Origin: Actinomyces marseillensis
GTDB taxonomy: Bacteria; Actinomycetota; Actinomycetes; Actinomycetales; Actinomycetaceae
DNA length: 64,000 nucleotides
Assembly: GCF_900155605.1 (NCBI RefSeq)
Contig: NZ_LT707420.1
Location: forward strand, 600,158-664,157
Reading direction: 5' to 3'
The position numbers were made by a program, and so were the translations under genes. Shown in pieces: positions 23,996 through 33,969 of the stretch. Under the pieces are notes generated by a model. That model worked only from the letters and a program-made list of their open reading frames with translations, was not told the origin of the DNA and searched no databases. The first letter of the stretch is position 1. Every line of letters starts with the position of its first letter.

Positions 23996-25942
23996 ATGGC
24001 AAATAGCCAGCCAAAAATGTCCACCATCCACATCGACCCCGTCAATGCAGTCCCTTCTTTCCCCAAGCTCACAATCCTTGGTTTTCAACATGTCCTCGCG
24101 TTTTACGCCGGGGCAGTCGTTGTTCCGCTGGTTATTGCCACCGGATTGGGACTCGATTCGGCAACCACTGTTCACCTGATCAACGCGGACCTCTTCACCT
24201 GTGGTATCGCCTCGATCATTCAATCTGCAGGACTCGGACCCAAGATCGGTGTCCGCCTGCCGCTCCTTCAAGGAGTCACTTTCACTGCAGTCTCGCCCCT
24301 GATTGCTGTCGGTCTGGCGGCAGGCGGCGGAACTCAAGGCCTCGCAACAATGTATGGCTCCATCATTGTTGCCGGTATTGCAACCTTCCTTGCTGCGCCC
24401 TTCTTCGCGAAACTGCTGCGTTTCTTCCCGCCTGTTGTCACTGGTGCTTTGCTGACCGTCATGGGCACAACCCTTCTCTCGGTCGCGGCAAATGACATTG
24501 TCGCCTGGGGAAGTGCAGCGGCAAAGGTTGGCGCGGACCCCATTCCAGGAACCTTGCGAGGCCTCGCATACGCACTGGGAACCCTTGCAGTCATCGTCAT
24601 CATTCAGCGTATTTTCTCCGGCTTCATGGCGACTATCGCGGTCCTTCTTGGCTTGGTCGGAGGAACCCTTGTTGCGTGGCTCCTTGGAGACGCAAACTTC
24701 TCGGCTGTGGGGGAGGCGGCACCGGTGGGTGTCACCACCCCCTTCTTCTTTGGAATTCCGAAGTTCTCTGTCGCTGCGATCATCTCAATGCTGATCGTCA
24801 TGGCGATTACGGCGGTCGAGACCACGGGCGACGTTTTCGCCACGGGTGAGGTTGTTGGAAAGCGCATTACTCCCGCGCATATCGCTAATGCCCTGCGTGC
24901 CGATGGCCTTTCTACCGCTCTGGGCGGTGTCTTGAACTCCTTCCCCTACACCTGCTTCGCTCAAAACGTTGGTCTGGTGCGTCTGACTCGAGTGAAGTCC
25001 CGTTGGGTCGTCACCGCGGCCGGTGTCATCATGATCATCTTGGGTGTACTCCCCAAGGCTGGAGCCGTCGTAGCGTCGATTCCCAAGCCGGTGATCGGTG
25101 GCGCTTCCTTGGCGATGTTCGCTGCCGTTGCGGTTGTTGGTATTCAGACTCTGTCCACGGTTGATATGCGCGATAACCGTAATTCGGTGATCGTGTCGAC
25201 CTCAATCGGTCTGGGCCTGCTGGTGACCTTGAAGCCGGACTTAGCAGGATATGTGCCTTCGTGGGCGCAGATTCTGTTCGGATCCGGTGTGACTATCGGT
25301 TCGATCTGCGCGATCATCCTCAACATCATCTTCTTCCACATTGGTCGCAAGCCAGCTCCCGCGGTGTCGATGCTCGATGGTCGTCCGCTGGACTTGGACG
25401 CAGTCAATAGCTTGGGCGAAGAGAAGTTCGTTCGCGTGTTTGAGCCAATGTTCTCAGGCGTCACGTGGCCACTAGAGCGAGCATGGGCCCGCGCGCCTTT
25501 CGCTAACGTGTCAGAGTTGCGTTACGCCTTCCAAGACGCCGTTGCTCAGGCAAGCCCCGAGGAACAGGAATCACTGATTGCCGGCTACACCGATATCGTT
25601 GACCTCCTGTTGTCCGACGAGGCCGATGAGCAGGCTTTGGTGGACACCGGTTCCACCTTGCTGGGTGACTTTGACCCTGCGAAGCAAGAAGAGCTTCGCG
25701 TCTTGGGTAAGGCCTACCGCGAACGCTTCAATCGTCCGATGATCGTCTGTGTTTCACGCATTGATTCAGCGGATCAATTGTTGGCTGATGGTTGGCGCCG
25801 TGTTGAGAGCTCGGACTTGCGCGAAATGCGTGTGACCCTCAACGAGGTCATTGAGATCGCGGATAACCGTTTCGAAGCCATGGTCGCGGATGCGAATCCG
25901 ATCCACTCCGCGTGGATGCGCTCTTTCGACCAGCTCGACTGA
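23996..25942 (+). CDS. NCS2 nucleobase permease fused to an OHCU-decarboxylase-like domain
   Basis: 648 residues. Residues 1-460 form an NCS2 (xanthine/uric acid/uracil) symporter: FQHVLAFYAGAVVVPLVIATG at the start and the signature NSFPYTCFAQNVGLV. Residues about 475-640 match 2-oxo-4-hydroxy-4-carboxy-5-ureidoimidazoline decarboxylase, the last step from urate to S-allantoin: ERAWARAPFANVSELRYAF, ASPEEQESLIAGY, LGKAYRERFNRPMIVCVSR. The family's catalytic HPDL reads YTDI here (Tyr531 for His), while the DEQ glutamate and the later Arg remain. The tail may thus sense ligand or modulate transport rather than decarboxylate. ATG 23996 has AGGAG at 23984-23988; a GTG at 23975 is in frame. No other urate genes are nearby, so urate or xanthine as substrate is inferred. 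Confidence 0.88.
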   Translation: MANSQPKMSTIHIDPVNAVPSFPKLTILGFQHVLAFYAGAVVVPLVIATGLGLDSATTVHLINADLFTCGIASIIQSAGLGPKIGVRLPLLQGVTFTAVSPLIAVGLAAGGGTQGLATMYGSIIVAGIATFLAAPFFAKLLRFFPPVVTGALLTVMGTTLLSVAANDIVAWGSAAAKVGADPIPGTLRGLAYALGTLAVIVIIQRIFSGFMATIAVLLGLVGGTLVAWLLGDANFSAVGEAAPVGVTTPFFFGIPKFSVAAIISMLIVMAITAVETTGDVFATGEVVGKRITPAHIANALRADGLSTALGGVLNSFPYTCFAQNVGLVRLTRVKSRWVVTAAGVIMIILGVLPKAGAVVASIPKPVIGGASLAMFAAVAVVGIQTLSTVDMRDNRNSVIVSTSIGLGLLVTLKPDLAGYVPSWAQILFGSGVTIGSICAIILNIIFFHIGRKPAPAVSMLDGRPLDLDAVNSLGEEKFVRVFEPMFSGVTWPLERAWARAPFANVSELRYAFQDAVAQASPEEQESLIAGYTDIVDLLLSDEADEQALVDTGSTLLGDFDPAKQEELRVLGKAYRERFNRPMIVCVSRIDSADQLLADGWRRVESSDLREMRVTLNEVIEIADNRFEAMVADANPIHSAWMRSFDQLD

Positions 25943-26117: not shown

Positions 26118-26243
26118 CCCTCCTGGTTTAGCTCATTCATTCCGGGCCTATTGCTGTTCTAAGGCGGTAGGTGAGCGAGCTAAACCAGGAATGAGAGAGC
26201 TAACGGGGGAAGGGGAGAGCTAAAGCATGACTGCGCGATCTAA
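26118..26243. repeat. Dispersed palindromic repeat, copy A, with 20-bp GAGCTAA iterons
   Basis: TCCTGGTTTAGCTC (26121-26134) and its exact complement (26177-26190) bound a core containing CCTATTGCTGTTCT and GTAGGTG. Right of it GAGCTAA recurs at 26177, 26197 and 26217, with GATCTAA at 26237, exactly 20 bp apart. A homologous element lies at 50552-50637. It sits in the 468-base spacer between the permease terminator and the adhesin terminator, i.e. between convergent 3' ends. The rest of that spacer (26025-26117, 26244-26335) shows no gene. Confidence 0.8.
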
Positions 26244-26335: not shown

Positions 26336-26374
26336 AAAAAGGGCCGGGCCCCGACTTTCGTCGAGGCCCGGCCC
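26336..26374 (-). terminator. Terminator of the giant adhesin gene
   Basis: GGGCCGGGCC (26341-26350) pairs with GGCCCGGCCC (26365-26374), extended inside by CGA/TCG; on the - strand the stem is followed by TTTTTGTG. Confidence 0.9.
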
Positions 26375-26410: not shown

Positions 26411-29400
26411 TCAGTTGCGACGCTTGCGAGCGGTGCCAAGGACACCCACACCAGCGGTCAGCAACATGGCCGTGAGGATCGCGATCCACTGTGCATCCGA
26501 ACCGGTCTTCGCCAGGATCGACTTCGCAGGCTGCGAAGGCGTCGGGATCAAGGTGACCGGGAAGTCAATATCCAAGTTGACCTCGCCCTCCGTCACGCTA
26601 ACGGACTGAGCGGTCGACGCGGCCTCGTAACCGGAAGGAACCTCGATCGACACGGTGTAGGTGCCGGGGAGGACTCCCTCGAAGCGGTAGCGACCATCGG
26701 AGTCGGTCGTCGTACGCGCGACCTCGGTGCCGGAAGCATCCTTGAGGATCACGGTCACGCCGGGAACTCCGGGCTCACCATTGTCAACGCCGTTGTGATC
26801 CTGATCGTTCCACACGCGGTCGCCGATCGTTGCCGGCTTGACGAAGCCAAAGTCAACGCCCTGGACCGAGGAATCGGTGATGGTCACCGGTGCCTGGGTT
26901 GCGCCGCGTCCGGTGTAGGCCTGGGTGTTGGTCAGACCGGCCAAGACGCCCGTGTTCGGATCAACGATCGAGACACGGTAGGTGCCCACTCCGAGGCCAA
27001 CAAACTGGTAGTTGCCATCGGCATCGGTCACGGTCGTCATGGGGTTGCCATCGTGATTGAGGACGGGGTTGCCATCGCCATCGAGCAGGGCGACAGTCAC
27101 GCCGGCGAAACGCTCTTCGGTCGAGCTCTTGGAGAAGCTTGCATCGGAGTCACGGTAGATCGTGCCACCGAGGTTGTAGCCGCCCTTGAAGGACGCCGAG
27201 GACTCGTTGTTCGTAGGGTTGTCGCCCGCCTGATCCTGGTGGGAGACACGCGCGACGTTCGTGACGAGCGCGCCCGCACCTTCACCGGTGATCTCGACGG
27301 TGATTTCGATGGATTGATCATCACCCTTGGCGATGGTCTCTCCGGACAGGTTCCACACGCCGGCGGTCGCATCGTAGGTGCCGTCGCCTTCAGCCTTGAC
27401 GAACTTAACGCCCGCCGGGAGCTTGTCGGAGACGGTGACACCGGTTGCCACGCCCGGACCATTGTTGGACAGGGTCAGGGTGTAGGTGACCTTCTTACCG
27501 GGGGTGAACTCGAAGGTTTCCTGATCGACCTCGTCCGGATCGGTGATCGCCTTCTTGATGGCGGTGTCAGCCGAGATTCCGAAGCCCCAGTCCTGATCAA
27601 GGTTCTGGTTCTTCTCGCCCGTCAGAGTCAGGTTAGCCGTGAGCTTCATGGCGGTTGCGAAGGCGGTGGAATCAGCCTTGGTTGCATCACTGACCACGGT
27701 CTTGTTCTCAACATCTCCAGCAGGGGAGTGGGTGAGAACGTCGAGCAGCGGTTCGGCGGTCTGGAGAGTCTGAGGATCGATACTCACCTTGTAGTCGCCG
27801 GGCAGCAGGTTCTCGAACTTGTACTTGCCATCCGCATCGGTCGTGGTCTCGTAGGTGCGGGTGATTCCACCCGGGCCGGTCCAGGTCAAAGTGACCTTCA
27901 CGCCGGGCAGCACCTTGTCGCCAGCGTCGGGGGCATTGCCACCATTCTGGTTGACGTCGAGGAACAGCTGATCGCCGATGACACCGGTACCAACGGCACC
28001 GAAGTCAATCGTTTCATCCGTCTGATCCTGAGCCAGGGTGACCGAGGCCGTAGCTCCGTTGGAGTCGAGAGCGCGGTCGGTTCCGGCATCCGAGGTTGTG
28101 GCCTCGTAGCCTGCAGGTGCCTGGAAGGACACCTTGTAGTCGCCGGGCAGCAGGTTCTCGAACTTGTACTTGCCATTCGCGTCGCTTGTCTTCGCTGTCA
28201 CGGCATTGCCAGAGGCATCGGTCACGGCGGAGCCGTCCGCGTAGGTCAGGGTGACCGTCACGCCGGGCAGAGCCGGTTCGTCGGTATCCTGAATGCCATC
28301 GCGGTTGACGTCCATCCAGGTGTAGTCACCCAGCGAAGCGGGCTTGACGAAGCCGAAGTTCACGTCGATAACGGAACCGGTTTCAGCCTTGATCGTCACT
28401 TCAGCGCTGGTCTTGTAGCGACCCGTGTAGGCCTCGAGAGGCTTGGTGCCTGCGAGAGGACCAGAGGTCGGGTTAACAACATCCACCTTGTATTCACCCA
28501 GGGGAAGACCCGCGAAGGAGTACTTGCCGTCAGCGTCGGTCACAGCGGTTACAGGGTTGCCATCCTTGTCGAGGACAGGGGTGCCGTCCTTCTTGAGGAG
28601 CGCAACGGTAACACCCGAGTAGGGGTTTTCGCCGTTATCAGAGCTGAAGGATGCGTTGGCATCGTTGTAGAGCTTGCCAGCGATCGTGTAACCGGCGGTC
28701 AAGGGCACCGAGGAGGTGTTGTCCGCGGTCTTATCACCGAACTGATCCTGGTGTTCGATGGTCGCCGTGTTGGTGACGATCGAACCAGCGGCCTCGGGAG
28801 TCACTCGCACGACGATGGTGCGCGTGCGGGTTGCATCCTTCTCGATGACCTCATCGCTCAGGTCCCACTTGCCGGTGGCTGCATCGTAGGTGCCGTCGCC
28901 GGTAGAGCTCACGAAAGTCACACCCGTGGGGAGCTTATCCTGCGCGATGACACCGGTTGCAGGGTTGGGGCCCTCGTTCGTCAAGGTGATCGTGTAGGTG
29001 ACAGTCGTGCCGGGGGTGAAGCCACCCGCGGGCTCGGCTGCCGGATCCGTGATGGTCTTGACGATCGCGGTGTTCGCAGGACCGGTGAAAGCCCAGTCCT
29101 GAGAATCGTTGCTCATCTTGCCGGGGCTCAGAGTGACCTTCGAGCTCAGGGAGAGCGTCTGGTTCTCTGAAGGGGTCAGATTTCCTGAAGGAGCGTGGGT
29201 TTGTGCGGTGCACGCGGGGCATGCAGTCGTCAGCGAGGCCTGATCAACGGTGACCTTGTAGTCGCCGGGGGCCAGGTTCTCGAACTTGTACTTGCCGTCC
29301 GCGTCGGTCGTGGTCGTGAGCGTCTTCTCAACACCCGCCGGAGTCTTGAAGGTCAGCGTCACGGTTACGCCAGCCAGCGGCTTGTCCGGGCCCGAGGGCG

Positions 29401-32400
29401 CGGAGCCACCGTTGTTGTCGACGTCCCAGAACAGGGTGTCACCAATCGTGCCGTCGGCGACGAGGCCGAAGTCGACGGTCTCATCGTTCTGACCCTCGGT
29501 GAGCGTTACGGAGCTGTCGGCGCCGTTGGAGTCCTTCTCGCCGTCCGCAGCCGCGTAGCTCTTGGTCGCGGAGTAGCCGGCGGGAGGAGTGAAGGTGACC
29601 TTGTAGTTCTCCTCGCCCGCGTTCGCGACGATCCGATCGACGTTCGGCATCAGGTTCGTGAACTCGTACTTACCGTTGGCATCCGTGGTCACAGGCTTGA
29701 CGGGGTTGCCGTCCAGGTCGATGACTGGGTTGCCGGCACCGTCCGTCAGAGTGACGGTGACGCCGGCGACGCCGAACTCGTCCGCGTCCTGGATGCCATC
29801 CTTGTTCGCGTCGAACCACACGAAGTTACCCACCGAGGCGGGCTTCACGAACGCAAAGTCGACCTTCGTGGCGTTGGGCGCGGCACTCGTCAGGGCGATC
29901 GGGGTCGGCGTGACGAGCTTGCCCTTGCCGGCCTCGCTGCGCCTGGTTGACGAGCCGTAGCCGTAGGTCTGCTTGTAGTCGGCCAGGTTCACGTCGGTGC
30001 CGTCAACCTTCGCATCACCCGCAACGACCTCGACCTTGTACGAGCCCAGCGGCAGACGGGTGAAGGTGTACTTACCGTCGGCGTCGGTCTTCGTGGTGAT
30101 GTCGGCGCCGGACGAGTCCTTCACCGGGTTGCCGTCCGCGTCGAGCAGACGAACCGTCACACCCTCGAAAGGACTATCGAGGACGGGCGAATCGTTGAAC
30201 CAGGTCGCATCCTTGTCGTTGTAGATGGTGCCCGAGATGGTGCCGCCCACCTTGAAGGTCGCGCTGTCCTTGTTGTTGTCCGGGTTGGAGTCGATCTGGT
30301 CGAACTTACCCAGCGTCGCTGTGTTCGTGATGGTCGAACCCTCGGTCGAGGGCTTGACCTTCACGAGGAGATACAGCGTCTCGGTACCACCAACGTTGAG
30401 GTTGGTGTCGAGGATGCCGGACTCCATCGCACTCCAGGTACCGGCCGCCGCATCGTAGTTGGCGGTCGCGTAGACCGGGCCGGTGCAGGGGTTCGTCGCA
30501 CCATCCTGGCAGATACGCGTCTCGGAAGACACGTACTCCACACCAGAAGGCAGAGCGTCAGCAACGTTCATACCCGAGGCGACAGCAGGGCCCTTGGCCT
30601 TCAGGTTCACCTTGTACAGCATGTAGTCACCCGGCATGATCGGGTCCGTCGACTCAACCGTCTCGATGACGCCGTTAGCGTCACGAACCGGCTCGTCGCC
30701 GTTCATCTTCGCCCGGGCAACCGTCTTCTTCAGTTCGACGTCGGAGGAGACGTTGATGCCGACCTTGGGGGCCTCGTTGGGCAGCAGATAGGACACCTTG
30801 CCGTTCTGCATGGAGCCACCGGACATGGCCACGGAGTTCCAGGCGATGAGGTTGGCGTTGACCGGGGAGGTCATGGTCGCGACGAAGCGGATCTTCTCAC
30901 CCGGCTCGATGTCGCGGTTCATCACCAGGCGGAAGCCGGTGATCGTCGTCAGGTCGGCGGGAGCGTCGCCCCACGCATTGGGGGTACAACCGGCGGGGGC
31001 GTCATTCATGGCGCCACCCGCGGAGAGGACCTCGCCGCGGCAGGGGTTGGGAACCGTCGAGTACTGGACCGTGATGTCCGAGGCCGGAACAGCCGTGACC
31101 TCGGGATCGCGACCCGGCTTCTCCTTCACCGACTCGAACGCCCACGCCGTGGAGTTCAGGTTCGGCTTCCAGTGGGAGCCACGGGCCTGCGAGGAGGCGG
31201 GGCCGACACCCACGTCGTTCAGGTGGGGAAGGATGTCGTAGGCAACGACCTTGGTCAGCGGGGTGTTACCCGCGTTGGAGATCGTGAAACGGTAGGCGCC
31301 ATCGGCACCCGGGTCAATCTCGGCGACCTCGCCGGCCGGAACGAAGTCGGGGTTCTTATTACCCTTCACTTCCTTCTCGATGGCCATCGAGGGGGTCGTG
31401 GCGACGTTGAAGTCCCTCGCGGCGTTACAGATGTAGTCGGTCATCGAGCCGTTCTTGTTCACGTCGAAGGTGTCGACCGCGCGGCTACCGATGCAGTAGT
31501 TCGTGTTGCGCAAGCTCTTATCCTCGGTGGTCGCCTTCGCGCCGTCGCCGGGCATGAACGCCATGGCGTCGTTCGTGTTCTTACCAGCCGGAGCGGTCGC
31601 AAGCACGTTCACGTCGAAGGTCGAGTACAGGCTGCCCTCGACCGGATCCGGAACGTTCCAGCGAATCAGGGTACGGCCGGTGTTGTTGAAGTTCTTCTCG
31701 ATCTCCACCGTAACCTTGCTCAGGTCGTAGGGGGTGCCGTCGGGATTCTTCAGCGTCGAGCGCTTCTCGGGAACAATCTTGGAGACATCGTCCACATCAA
31801 AGCCCTCGGGCAGGAGGTCCACGATCGTGAACGGAGTGGGCGTGCCACCCTCGGACTTCGCCTTAGCGGTGCCGTTGATGAAGAACTGTGCGGGCTTCCC
31901 CACGACCACCGGGTTGGTGCGAACGACCTTGTAGGCCTGCACGGAGGGGAACTCGTCGCGCACGCGCATCCAGGAGCAGAGGTTGTCGTTCTGGACGAGG
32001 ACGCGGCCGCTGTCCTTGTCGGTGACGGTTCCGCTCGCGCAGTTCTGGAAGCGCACATAATCCGGGGAGGCCACGTAGTTGTAGTATCTCTCCGGCTGCG
32101 ACGCGGGGTTGTAGTGAGAGGCGAAGTCTGCGGGTTCAGTCTTCGGGAAATCCGTGGGAACGGTTCCGTGCAGCCACGCCGAGGGGCGGGACTGCGGAGC
32201 GGCGTCCGTGTCGATCGTGAAGCGGGTGATCCACTCGCCCTCGGGAAGCGTGAGGCCTGTGGTCTTGTTGTAGACCACGGTTTCATGGTTGCCCTTGTTG
32301 GTCCAGTACTCCAGCTTCCAGCCGCCGTTATCCTCGTACCCGGACTTGCTGAAGACGGTGAAGCGGTAGGGGCTGACCATGGTCGGGGTATCGCAGGAGT

Positions 32401-33814
32401 TTCCCGAGGCCTTGGCATCCTGGGAGGACCAGGTGCAGGGAAGCGTGTCCTCCCAGCGGAAGTGCAGCACGGTGTTACCGGTGTTGTCGCCGCCGAAGCG
32501 CCACTGGTAGAGGCCTCCGCGTACCTGGTACGCCCAGTCGTTACCGGCCTTGGAGATGCCGCCACCTGGCTTGCGCTCGGCGAAGCCGTGGCTGATCTCG
32601 GAGCTCTTGGTGACGATGGTCGAGGGGTCGTTCATGACCTCGGCGCTAATGGTCGCCTTGTTGGTGACCGTGTCGGCGGTCGTGACACTACCCGCGGGGT
32701 ACTTCACGGTGACGGTCGACTCGATCGGGTTCTGCCAGAACCACTTGTCGTAGGACCAGGTGACGGTATGGGTGGCCGGATCGTACACGCCGCCGTCGGA
32801 GGCCGTGACGAAGACGGCCTTGGCGGGCAGCGGGTCCACAACCTTGATGTTCTGGACACCCACGAAGCCGAGGCCGTTGAGGCCGTTCTTCAGCGAGGAG
32901 CCGTTCCAGCGGATGCCGACCTTGTTGGGGTTGGTCTGGTCGATCTGCTGGTAGCCGTAGCGGAGCCTGTAGGTCGTCTCGCCGCCGGCCGCGGGATAGT
33001 TGGAGGGATTCGTGGGGCCGCTCTTCTCGATGGCGACGTCGGTGGTGGCCGTCCACGTGGTGGTGAGCGCCTGCTCGACCGTCTGGGCGTTAGCCGCCCG
33101 GAAGGTCACCGTCTGGTTCGTCGTGGAGTTGTTCGGCGCGTCATAGTAGTCGTAGTGCCAGGTGACCTGGATTCGATCGGACGTGCCGGCGGGCAGCGGG
33201 TCCTTCAGCTTGAAGATGTAGTGCTGCACGCGGGTGCCGTCCGGGGTCTTTTCCGTCGAGTTCGTCGTCTTGGTGACGCTGTCGCCGGTGACGGGGACGA
33301 CCGTGTAGCCGCGCTCTGCGAGCTTGAGGCCGGCCGGCGTGATGGGGCCGGGCAGCGTGAGCTCAATTTCGGCGCCTTTACAGGGGGTGGTGACCGAGGA
33401 GCAGGAGAAATTGATCGTCGTGATCTGATCGTCGTGGATGCGCAGGGTCGGTTCATCGTTGACGACGTTCAGGGCCAGGGTCGCCTGGTCGTCCGCGACC
33501 GCACGGGCGCGGCGCGTGCGAGGGGTGTTCGCGTCTGCGCTCACTCCTGCGTTCTGTGCTGAAATCTCTGCGGGGGCTTCGGTATTTGTTGCCGGAGCAG
33601 GGGTTTCCTCAGCGGAGGCGCCGCTTGCTTCTTCGGTCGTGGCGTTTTCGCTGCCTGTATCCGAGGTTTGGGCTGCCTGAGTGGTCTCGCTGCTGTTATC
33701 AGCCGCTACGCTCCCGTATAGGGGGCTGAGCGGCGTGAACAGTAGCGAAAGTGTGGCAATACTTGCCGCACCAGCTATACGCACACGCGTATTGAGCAGT
33801 CGAGGGTGTGTCAT
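26411..33814 (-). CDS. Giant modular wall-anchored adhesin (SdrD B-like and DUF11 domains)
   Basis: 2467 residues. A signal peptide (about 1-40) is followed by a low-complexity S/T/E/A head (to about 110), a long N-terminal region of unclear folds with at least one DUF11-like segment, and from about residue 1190 eight SdrD B-like (Cna-B-type) modules (GTIYND-, GNFVWFD-, GDTLFWD- types in order) interleaved with DUF11 domains. The C-terminus is a sorting signal: LAKTG, hydrophobic span, ARKRRN. LAXTG is the substrate type of class E sortases. The N-terminal part is clearly richer in GC than the C-terminal modules. ATG 33814 has GAGAGAG upstream and gives the better signal peptide; ATG 33829 is in frame. 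Probable role: adhesion or a tip protein of another pilus. Confidence 0.9.
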   Translation of the reverse strand: MTHPRLLNTRVRIAGAASIATLSLLFTPLSPLYGSVAADNSSETTQAAQTSDTGSENATTEEASGASAEETPAPATNTEAPAEISAQNAGVSADANTPRTRRARAVADDQATLALNVVNDEPTLRIHDDQITTINFSCSSVTTPCKGAEIELTLPGPITPAGLKLAERGYTVVPVTGDSVTKTTNSTEKTPDGTRVQHYIFKLKDPLPAGTSDRIQVTWHYDYYDAPNNSTTNQTVTFRAANAQTVEQALTTTWTATTDVAIEKSGPTNPSNYPAAGGETTYRLRYGYQQIDQTNPNKVGIRWNGSSLKNGLNGLGFVGVQNIKVVDPLPAKAVFVTASDGGVYDPATHTVTWSYDKWFWQNPIESTVTVKYPAGSVTTADTVTNKATISAEVMNDPSTIVTKSSEISHGFAERKPGGGISKAGNDWAYQVRGGLYQWRFGGDNTGNTVLHFRWEDTLPCTWSSQDAKASGNSCDTPTMVSPYRFTVFSKSGYEDNGGWKLEYWTNKGNHETVVYNKTTGLTLPEGEWITRFTIDTDAAPQSRPSAWLHGTVPTDFPKTEPADFASHYNPASQPERYYNYVASPDYVRFQNCASGTVTDKDSGRVLVQNDNLCSWMRVRDEFPSVQAYKVVRTNPVVVGKPAQFFINGTAKAKSEGGTPTPFTIVDLLPEGFDVDDVSKIVPEKRSTLKNPDGTPYDLSKVTVEIEKNFNNTGRTLIRWNVPDPVEGSLYSTFDVNVLATAPAGKNTNDAMAFMPGDGAKATTEDKSLRNTNYCIGSRAVDTFDVNKNGSMTDYICNAARDFNVATTPSMAIEKEVKGNKNPDFVPAGEVAEIDPGADGAYRFTISNAGNTPLTKVVAYDILPHLNDVGVGPASSQARGSHWKPNLNSTAWAFESVKEKPGRDPEVTAVPASDITVQYSTVPNPCRGEVLSAGGAMNDAPAGCTPNAWGDAPADLTTITGFRLVMNRDIEPGEKIRFVATMTSPVNANLIAWNSVAMSGGSMQNGKVSYLLPNEAPKVGINVSSDVELKKTVARAKMNGDEPVRDANGVIETVESTDPIMPGDYMLYKVNLKAKGPAVASGMNVADALPSGVEYVSSETRICQDGATNPCTGPVYATANYDAAAGTWSAMESGILDTNLNVGGTETLYLLVKVKPSTEGSTITNTATLGKFDQIDSNPDNNKDSATFKVGGTISGTIYNDKDATWFNDSPVLDSPFEGVTVRLLDADGNPVKDSSGADITTKTDADGKYTFTRLPLGSYKVEVVAGDAKVDGTDVNLADYKQTYGYGSSTRRSEAGKGKLVTPTPIALTSAAPNATKVDFAFVKPASVGNFVWFDANKDGIQDADEFGVAGVTVTLTDGAGNPVIDLDGNPVKPVTTDANGKYEFTNLMPNVDRIVANAGEENYKVTFTPPAGYSATKSYAAADGEKDSNGADSSVTLTEGQNDETVDFGLVADGTIGDTLFWDVDNNGGSAPSGPDKPLAGVTVTLTFKTPAGVEKTLTTTTDADGKYKFENLAPGDYKVTVDQASLTTACPACTAQTHAPSGNLTPSENQTLSLSSKVTLSPGKMSNDSQDWAFTGPANTAIVKTITDPAAEPAGGFTPGTTVTYTITLTNEGPNPATGVIAQDKLPTGVTFVSSTGDGTYDAATGKWDLSDEVIEKDATRTRTIVVRVTPEAAGSIVTNTATIEHQDQFGDKTADNTSSVPLTAGYTIAGKLYNDANASFSSDNGENPYSGVTVALLKKDGTPVLDKDGNPVTAVTDADGKYSFAGLPLGEYKVDVVNPTSGPLAGTKPLEAYTGRYKTSAEVTIKAETGSVIDVNFGFVKPASLGDYTWMDVNRDGIQDTDEPALPGVTVTLTYADGSAVTDASGNAVTAKTSDANGKYKFENLLPGDYKVSFQAPAGYEATTSDAGTDRALDSNGATASVTLAQDQTDETIDFGAVGTGVIGDQLFLDVNQNGGNAPDAGDKVLPGVKVTLTWTGPGGITRTYETTTDADGKYKFENLLPGDYKVSIDPQTLQTAEPLLDVLTHSPAGDVENKTVVSDATKADSTAFATAMKLTANLTLTGEKNQNLDQDWGFGISADTAIKKAITDPDEVDQETFEFTPGKKVTYTLTLSNNGPGVATGVTVSDKLPAGVKFVKAEGDGTYDATAGVWNLSGETIAKGDDQSIEITVEITGEGAGALVTNVARVSHQDQAGDNPTNNESSASFKGGYNLGGTIYRDSDASFSKSSTEERFAGVTVALLDGDGNPVLNHDGNPMTTVTDADGNYQFVGLGVGTYRVSIVDPNTGVLAGLTNTQAYTGRGATQAPVTITDSSVQGVDFGFVKPATIGDRVWNDQDHNGVDNGEPGVPGVTVILKDASGTEVARTTTDSDGRYRFEGVLPGTYTVSIEVPSGYEAASTAQSVSVTEGEVNLDIDFPVTLIPTPSQPAKSILAKTGSDAQWIAILTAMLLTAGVGVLGTARKRRN
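26700..30250 (-). repeat. Super-repeat of adhesin modules
   Basis: The modules recur as blocks. Block 1 (residues about 1190-1707) = GTIYND, GNFVWFD, GDTLFWD modules plus DUF11; block 2 (about 1708-2214) = GKLYND, GDYTWMD, GDQLFLD plus DUF11; block 3 (from about 2215) = GTIYRD and GDRVWND, then the anchor. Period is about 510 residues (about 1.5 kb); the third copy is truncated. Confidence 0.75.
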
Positions 33815-33969
33815 GGAAATCTCTCTCATCGCACAATTTATAGGGATACAAGCTTTAATTTACTTTCTGCGTGCCACCTGGGCAATTGTTTGTGTATTTC
33901 ATCATTGTGACGAAAAGTGCTCAGACAAGTGGGTGACGGTGCAACAAGGTGCCAGCCTACCGAAATAGG

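What the first reader, a model, noticed from the sequence alone, without database searches (positions are those of the whole stretch)
23996..25942. Nucleobase permease fused to an OHCU-decarboxylase-like domain with His replaced by Tyr
The C-terminal 165 residues align to OHCU decarboxylase (ureide pathway), but the HPDL histidine known to be catalytic in that family is Tyr531 here (YTDI). A transporter carrying a probably inactive enzyme domain suggests a built-in sensor for purine-degradation intermediates, or channelling of a labile compound if activity remains.
Basis: partly seen in the sequence, partly recalled or inferred. Interest (0 to 1): 0.62.

Follow-up and report, generated by a model that had tools for sequence, protein, structure and literature searches.

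The report
Purine transporter with dead-enzyme tail
A bacterial purine transporter carries, as its inner tail, a copy of a uric-acid-pathway enzyme whose catalytic histidine is replaced and which is kept even where the pathway is gone, so it has probably been turned from an enzyme into a built-in regulator of transport.

Summary
Window 23996-25942 (+) encodes a 648-residue xanthine/urate-type NCS2 permease (PF00860, E 5e-93) with a C-terminal OHCU-decarboxylase fold (PF09349, residues 471-627, E 4e-26; predicted fold Z 20.4 to zebrafish OHCU decarboxylase). Tyr531 aligns with catalytic His67. This is no local quirk: in 109 distinct fused domains read here the position is Tyr (105) or Phe (4), never His; in 71 distinct free-standing domains it is always His. 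The Arg161 equivalent is kept in 109 of 109; the Glu87 equivalent is Asp or Glu in 104. The tree is consistent with one origin. In the family, 0 of 55 genomes with the fusion have uricase, HIU hydrolase or MoCoBD_2 xanthine dehydrogenase, whereas all 11 with free-standing UraD have the first two; 54 of 55 orthologous permeases keep the tail. In 16 of 24 more distant genomes an intact UraD lies within 3 kb. Best reading: an old, maintained pseudo-decarboxylase tail that binds a purine-like ligand and/or mediates assembly to regulate transport, comparable with STAS tails of SLC26. Inactivity, ligand and effect are inferred. Channelling by an active decarboxylase is very unlikely here.

The parts
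23996..25942 (+). CDS, 648 aa: NCS2 xanthine/urate-type permease fused to a pseudo-OHCU-decarboxylase tail
   Evidence: ORF and translation; Pfam and NCBIfam
24065..25237 (+). NCS2 transporter domain, residues 24-414 (PF00860; full-length model matches UapA, UraA and SVCT1 folds)
24086..24091 (+). TM1 Gln-His motif, Q31-H32
   Evidence: invariant in alignment A3 (45 rows); TM1 position and name of the motif partly recalled, passages of PMC5972032
24818..24832 (+). TM8 motif E275-T-T-G-D279
   Evidence: invariant in A3; motif as in PMC5972032 passages
24962..24991 (+). TM10 NAT signature Q323-N-V-G-L-V-R-L-T-R332, the Gln type with Phe321 two before it (as in xanthine/urate-specific UapA)
25334..25405 (+). 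linker, residues 447-470, with predicted short strands at 456-460 and 463-466
25406..25876 (+). OHCU-decarboxylase-like tail domain, residues 471-627 (PF09349)
   Evidence: predicted fold Z 20.4 to 2o70_F
25586..25588 (+). Tyr531, at the position of catalytic His67
25643..25645 (+). Asp550, at the position of catalytic Glu87
25868..25870 (+). Arg625, at the position of active-site Arg161, kept in 109 of 109 fused domains
25886..25915 (+). C-terminal motif ADANP-x-x-x-AW, residues 631-640, after the domain; strict form in 62 of 110 fused rows and 0 of 72 free-standing rows

Best explanation
The gene encodes a proton-coupled (by family) xanthine/urate-type permease whose cytoplasmic tail is a pseudoenzyme derived from OHCU decarboxylase. 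A UraD gene near a purine permease was fused to the permease, probably once, lost the catalytic His (to Tyr) at or near the time of fusion, and has since been kept as a non-decarboxylating module with the fold and the pocket Arg intact. Most likely mechanism (inferred): the tail lies on the cytoplasmic side of the permease dimer, binds a purine or purine-derived ligand in the former active site, and so adjusts transport or transporter assembly to the internal purine level. Shown here: fusion, predicted fold, one clade in the sampled tree, loss of His with Arg retained in every fused domain read, purifying selection between close relatives, retention without the pathway. Inferred: loss of decarboxylase activity, ligand binding, effect on transport.
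For: 109 of 109 distinct fused domains lack the His (Tyr 105, Phe 4) and keep the Arg; 71 of 71 distinct free-standing domains have His, Glu, Arg (pooling). The 48 fused rows of an 87-row tree lie on one side of one branch (87/96; 89% of bootstrap trees). 0 of 55 fused genomes of the family have uricase, HIU hydrolase or MoCoBD_2; the 11 genomes with free-standing UraD all have the first two and 10 have the third. Orthologous permeases (64% identity or more over 428 aa) occur in 55 of 151 family genomes and 54 of these keep the tail. Window against its nearest relative L161: dN/dS 0.037 in the tail, 0.040 in the transporter. Fold kept. UapA and UraA form tight dimers essential for transport (PMC5972032, passage).
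Against: No ligand, no transport data, no measured loss of activity. Pocket geometry was not examined in coordinates. The tail diverges faster than the transporter (31-77% against 60-94% identity to the window); over the 228 of 496 pairs kept, the median dN/dS was 0.51 in the tail and 0.28 in the transporter, up to 1.34 in the tail, though dS nears saturation there. One family relative (G025) has the permease without a tail, one (G032) has a broken gene, and in 3 of the 53 genome-contig loci (L169, L211, L213) the permease is split over two frames. No xanthine phosphoribosyltransferase passes its cut-off in the genome, so the use of imported xanthine is unclear. The full-length model has pTM 0.64, so the placing of the tail is not reliable.
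Confidence: 0.6

Rival explanations
1. The tail is an assembly or docking module without ligand: UraD is a dimer (recalled), so the tail could strengthen the permease dimer, or in genomes with both genes pair with the intact UraD and hold urate-degrading enzymes at the membrane.
For: In 16 of 24 genome search genomes outside the family whose fused gene was read, an intact free-standing UraD lies within 3 kb, in 12 directly adjacent; at least six of these loci were found through that neighbour, which raises the share. Precedent: E. coli allantoinase interacts with the allantoin transporter (PMC10163214, abstract).
Against: The former pocket keeps Arg (109 of 109) and a nearly uniform Tyr (105 of 109), which a pure scaffold would not need; the 55 fused genomes of the family have no second PF09349 gene (the two matches in G032 are pieces of the broken fused gene), and none of the 53 genome-contig loci shows a free-standing UraD in its roughly 12.5 kb.
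Confidence: 0.22
2. The tail is an enzyme with changed chemistry: Tyr with Asp/Glu and Arg act on another purine-derived substrate.
For: Tyr (105 of 109), Asp/Glu (104 of 109) and Arg (109 of 109) are kept at the three catalytic positions, as a working site would be; some members (L141, L220) still have an enzyme-like Glu-Gln motif beside the changed His.
Against: Gln88, the same in 39 of 39 free-standing rows, varies in the fused rows; four members have Phe in place of Tyr; no shared neighbouring gene among the 53 loci.
Confidence: 0.1
3. The tail still decarboxylates OHCU and channels the labile compound.
For: Fold and Arg kept.
Against: Catalytic His absent in 109 of 109; score below the decarboxylase cut-off; no uricase or HIU hydrolase in the genome to make OHCU; in 16 of 24 more distant genomes a separate intact UraD is also kept.
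Confidence: 0.03
4. The tail is a decaying leftover without function.
For: Faster divergence than the transporter; higher median dN/dS in the tail over distant pairs; one clean loss (G025) and one broken gene (G032) in the family.
Against: 54 of 55 orthologous permeases keep the tail; low dN/dS in most of the closest pairs; Trp491, Pro492, Phe502, Leu527, Tyr531, Phe578, Pro581, Arg602, Glu610, Arg625, Ala633 invariant in 54 of 54 family sequences.
Confidence: 0.05

Closest known systems
OHCU decarboxylase (UraD, PF09349; zebrafish 2o70, Klebsiella 3o7h)
   Same: Fold (Z 20.4 and 17.0), profile match, Arg161 equivalent
   Different: Catalytic His replaced by Tyr, Glu by Asp, fused to a transporter, below the enzyme's NCBIfam cut-off, no uricase or HIU hydrolase in the genome
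NAT/NCS2 xanthine/urate permeases (UapA, PbuX, UraA)
   Same: Three NAT motifs, fold, pbuX model above cut-off
   Different: Extra tail of about 180 residues
SLC26/SulP transporters with C-terminal STAS domain
   Same: SLC26 transporters appear in the fold list of the full-length model; a C-terminal cytosolic STAS domain with a part in regulation is recalled, and the comparison is by analogy
   Different: The tail here matches OHCU decarboxylases and derives from a purine enzyme
Bifunctional UraD fusions (plant TTL, B. subtilis PucL)
   Same: UraD domain fused to another purine-pathway protein
   Different: There the partner is an enzyme and the UraD part is active (TTL: PMC2834698 passages; PucL recalled); here the partner is a transporter and the site is altered
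E. coli AllB-AllW (allantoinase and its transporter)
   Same: A purine-pathway enzyme that interacts with a transporter
   Different: Separate proteins, active enzyme (PMC10163214, abstract)

Membership tests
NAT/NCS2 nucleobase transporters | PF00860 / pbuX profile above cut-off | tested here: met
NAT/NCS2 nucleobase transporters | TM1 QH, TM8 ExxGD, TM10 QNxGxxxxTR motifs | tested here: met
   Q31 H32, E275..D279, Q323..R332; motif definitions from PMC5972032 passages, the TM1 one partly recalled
NAT/NCS2 nucleobase transporters | proton-coupled purine uptake | not testable with these tools
   needs a transport assay
OHCU decarboxylase | UraD fold / PF09349 | tested here: met
OHCU decarboxylase | catalytic His (zebrafish H67) | tested here: not met
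   Tyr531; 0 of 109 fused domains have His
OHCU decarboxylase | Glu87 and Gln88 | tested here: not met
   Asp550 and Thr551 in the window; their part in catalysis is recalled
OHCU decarboxylase | Arg161 | tested here: met
   Arg625
OHCU decarboxylase | score over the enzyme's equivalog cut-off | tested here: not met
   TIGR03164 53.6 against 96.25 bits; TIGR03180 20.1 against 139.4
OHCU decarboxylase | uricase and HIU hydrolase in the same genome | tested here: not met
   no PF01014 or PF00576 match in G000; non-homologous uricases (HpxO, HpyO, PuuD; PMC4562309 passages) were not searched
OHCU decarboxylase | decarboxylation of OHCU | not testable with these tools
   needs an enzyme assay

The most novel reading that the evidence does not exclude
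A dead decarboxylase has become a purine receptor built into an elevator-type transporter: the tail binds cytosolic purine in the old active site (Tyr/Asp/Arg) and gates the NCS2 dimer, a kind of regulatory domain that I know of in no other NCS2 transporter, acquired probably once in Actinomycetota and kept after the catabolic pathway was lost.
Probability: 0.35. Interest if true: 0.75.

Novelty: new variant of a known kind. Interest (0 to 1): 0.52.

Why it matters
As far as I know NCS2 transporters are treated as single-domain carriers; a widespread, maintained pseudoenzyme tail would give the family a regulatory module and a direct experimental handle on purine uptake in Actinomyces, Schaalia, Corynebacterium and relatives, many of them (by name) from people and animals. 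It is also a clean case of an enzyme turned pseudoenzyme at a gene fusion: apparently one origin, one hallmark residue, and in some genomes an intact paralogue next door for comparison. A practical point: PF09349 hits should not be counted as UraD when uric-acid degradation is predicted; 55 of the 66 PF09349-positive genomes of this family carry only the fused, His-less form or, in G032, its broken remains.

Tried and rejected
Riboswitch control: Rfam over the window at gathering thresholds found only three tRNAs. Conserved neighbours: clustering ORFs of the 53 genome-contig loci and the window gave no gene shared by most loci other than the permease and what look like its shadow frames; the next cluster is in 17 of 54. 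Xanthine phosphoribosyltransferase in the genome: only a sub-threshold match. Chance match or misaligned His: rejected by profile, structure and the pooled alignment. Scripts (gene calling by longest ORF, pulling uricase and HIU hydrolase pieces) led nowhere and were replaced. Literature: searches (open-licence PMC only, no preprints) listed no paper that I could recognise as being about an NCS2-OHCU fusion; I saw listings, and opened six papers (passages or outline only). The catalytic-residue papers for zebrafish and Klebsiella UraD are not held, so the catalytic role of H67, E87 and R161 is recalled.

Limits of counts: the Glu87 column depends on the alignment (in one search four Phe-type domains read Ala there; one search counts only two Ala in all). 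The distinct sequences come from 202 rows with identical cores collapsed. (class) had 164 positive genomes of 345, its match list was cut, and only its best 30 loci, plus G463, were read. Of the 53 loci, 50 gave a full-length permease for alignment; 44 of these went into A3 and 49 into A4. The 87 tree rows were chosen by hand.

Full report
What is there. Window 23996-25942 (+) is one open frame of 648 residues. Residues 24-414 match Xan_ur_permease (PF00860, E 5.3e-93) and residues 471-627 match OHCU_decarbox over its whole length (PF09349, E 3.8e-26). NCBIfam calls the first part a PbuX-type xanthine permease above its cut-off; its decarboxylase models match below theirs. The transporter carries the three NAT motifs: QH (31-32), E-x-x-G-D (275-279) and Q-N-x-G-x-x-x-x-T-R (323-332) with Phe at 321, the combination described for the xanthine/urate transporter UapA (PMC5972032, passages). 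The window's 2.0-Mb genome has no other PF09349 match and two further NCS2 permeases.

Fold and active site. A model of the tail built from the window and 49 relatives has mean pLDDT 84.5 and pTM 0.80. The eight entries with Z above 14 are OHCU decarboxylases, (S)-allantoin synthase and the uncharacterised homologue Atu2327: 2o70_F Z 20.4, rmsd 2.3, 164 residues; 5z5m Z 17.6; 3o7h Z 17.0; the next chain has Z 5.5. By sequence Tyr531 lies at His67, Asp550 at Glu87 and Arg625 at Arg161, and the ranges of the structural match agree. That these three are the catalytic residues is recalled; the papers are not held. The only His in the tail, H637, lies after the domain and is Arg in most relatives. 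The full-length model (mean pLDDT 80.6, pTM 0.64) matches SVCT1, UapA and UraA in the transporter part; its placing of the tail should not be trusted.

Distribution in the family. PF09349 hits 66 of 151 genomes of the window's family: 11 with a free-standing UraD and 55 with the fusion (one of them, G032, broken into several frames). Uricase (PF01014) and HIU hydrolase (PF00576) occur in 11 of 151 genomes each, exactly the 11 with free-standing UraD. MoCoBD_2, standing for xanthine dehydrogenase, occurs in 16 of 151, among them 10 of those 11 (the eleventh, G113, is 57% complete) and 0 of the 55. So in this family the fused domain is not part of a working ureide pathway. Non-homologous uricases (named in PMC4562309, passages) were not searched, but the missing HIU hydrolase makes the same point. 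With the transporter part alone as query, orthologues at 64% identity or more occur in 55 of 151 genomes; 54 have the tail and one, G025, ends cleanly after the transporter. The next best permeases of the family are at 48% or less, in the genomes whose only PF09349 match is free-standing.

Wider distribution. A scan of 84,980 species genomes with the tail alignment gave 53 loci, by title mostly Actinomycetaceae, Propionibacteriaceae and Corynebacteriaceae (the scan pattern lies in the C-terminal ADANP motif, so members without it are missed). All 53 have Tyr and Arg at the two positions; none shows a free-standing UraD in its roughly 12.5 kb; three have the permease split over two frames. Searches across class, phylum and order led to fused proteins in 24 genomes of six further family codes (f4, f8, f11, f57, f59, f120). 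Pooling 202 rows and collapsing identical cores leaves 109 distinct fused and 71 distinct free-standing domains. Fused: Tyr 105, Phe 4, His 0; Arg 109; Asp 87, Glu 17, other 5 at the Glu87 column. Free-standing: His 71, Glu 71, Arg 71. Not every PF09349 hit was read (of the class search the best 30 loci and G463), so a fusion with His elsewhere cannot be ruled out.

Origin. In a tree of 87 of these domains (48 fused, 39 free, chosen by hand to cover the diversity, His and Glu columns removed) the fused ones lie on one side of one branch (87/96; 89% of bootstrap trees), next to a free-standing UraD of f98 (80/89) amid an unresolved set of free-standing UraD, most of family f57. One origin is thus consistent with the data, not proved. 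The His column needs two changes on this tree, most simply His to Tyr and then Tyr to Phe within f11. In L141 and L220 the motif around Glu87-Gln88 still looks like an enzyme's (SPESRREQ, PDSAQEQ) while the His is already Tyr. I infer that the His change came early and marks the fusion clade.

Setting in more distant genomes. In L140 the fused gene is followed by an intact UraD, uricase, an amidohydrolase and an IclR regulator, and preceded by xanthine dehydrogenase subunits and a deaminase-family protein. L135 has uricase, a second NCS2 permease, the fused gene and UraD in a row. L144 has the fused gene, a deaminase, a tail-less permease and uricase; L138 amidohydrolases; L141 a deaminase; L137 only UraD among the genes scanned. 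Of the 24 genomes, 16 have an intact UraD within 3 kb, 12 of them directly adjacent; at least six of these loci were found through the free-standing gene, which biases the share upward, and of the nine loci only one has it. A likely history is a UraD copy beside a permease, fusion with loss of His, and later loss of the pathway in lineages such as Actinomycetaceae with retention of the fused protein. Transfer of the fused gene into pathway-free lineages is not excluded.

Selection. Eleven tail residues are invariant in 54 of 54 family sequences. Between the window and its nearest relative L161 dN/dS is 0.037 in the tail and 0.040 in the transporter; the eight closest pairs listed (transporter dS 0.25 or less) give 0 to 0.46 in the tail. 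Over the 228 of 496 pairs kept, medians are 0.51 and 0.28 and the tail reaches 1.34, but dS nears saturation in these genes, so I give this less weight. A further mark is the C-terminal ADANP-x-x-x-AW motif, in strict form in 62 of 110 fused rows and in none of 72 free-standing rows; looser forms occur in f4, f8, f11 and f120, none in f57 and f59, and it is worn in some family members.

How it most likely works. The cell shows no way of making OHCU, the His is gone, and yet the domain, its Arg and a nearly uniform Tyr are kept. I therefore favour a pseudoenzyme tail that binds a purine-like ligand and regulates transport or assembly (0.6 for the pseudoenzyme-regulator reading as a whole; 0.35 for direct purine gating). 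That the UraD pocket can hold a purine is recalled (a zebrafish complex with guanine; entries 2o73 and 2o74 appear without ligand names). UapA and UraA act as dimers (PMC5972032, passage), UraD is a dimer (recalled), so the tail could act across the transporter dimer, as STAS domains may in SLC26 carriers (analogy, recalled). Ligand, orientation and effect are inference.

Novelty. Ten searches of open-licence PMC listed no paper that I could recognise as describing this fusion; the NCS2 survey PMC6308229 has no occurrence of 'OHCU' in its main text, and PMC4016543 (one table passage) lists permease and OHCU decarboxylase of Rubrobacter xylanophilus as separate neighbours. Subscription papers and database annotations could not be checked. 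Both domains are known families and the architecture follows from Pfam matches, so I rate it a new variant of a known kind.

Noticed in passing
L162, L181, L184, L198 (genome contigs records): Records titled Trueperella pyogenes 331_TPYO, Sanguibacter keddieii 250_SKED, Xylanimonas cellulosilytica 352_XCEL and Tissierella sp. Marseille-P2918: contigs of the same lengths belong to genomes classed in the window's genus (G132, G066, G146) or family (G044), so these records look misnamed.
   Followed up: partly
window 26120-26200: Downstream of the gene an inverted repeat (cctggtttagctc ... gagctaaaccagg) with further gagctaa copies; purpose unknown.
   Followed up: no
window 26341-26374: Strong 15-pair hairpin with a T run on the minus strand, probably the terminator of the large minus-strand gene.
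   Followed up: no
window 26411-33829 (-): 2472-residue repeat-rich protein with a C-terminal sorting-signal-like end (LAKTG ... RKRRN), probably a surface protein; several long plus-strand frames opposite it look like shadow frames.
   Followed up: no
L218 (G025) and L066 (G032): Two family members in which the tail is cleanly absent, or the whole gene is broken into several frames.
   Followed up: yes
L144:5096-9637, L154: Clusters with a fused permease, then a second tail-less NCS2 permease that runs straight into an intact UraD in another frame: a possible picture of the gene order before fusion.
   Followed up: partly
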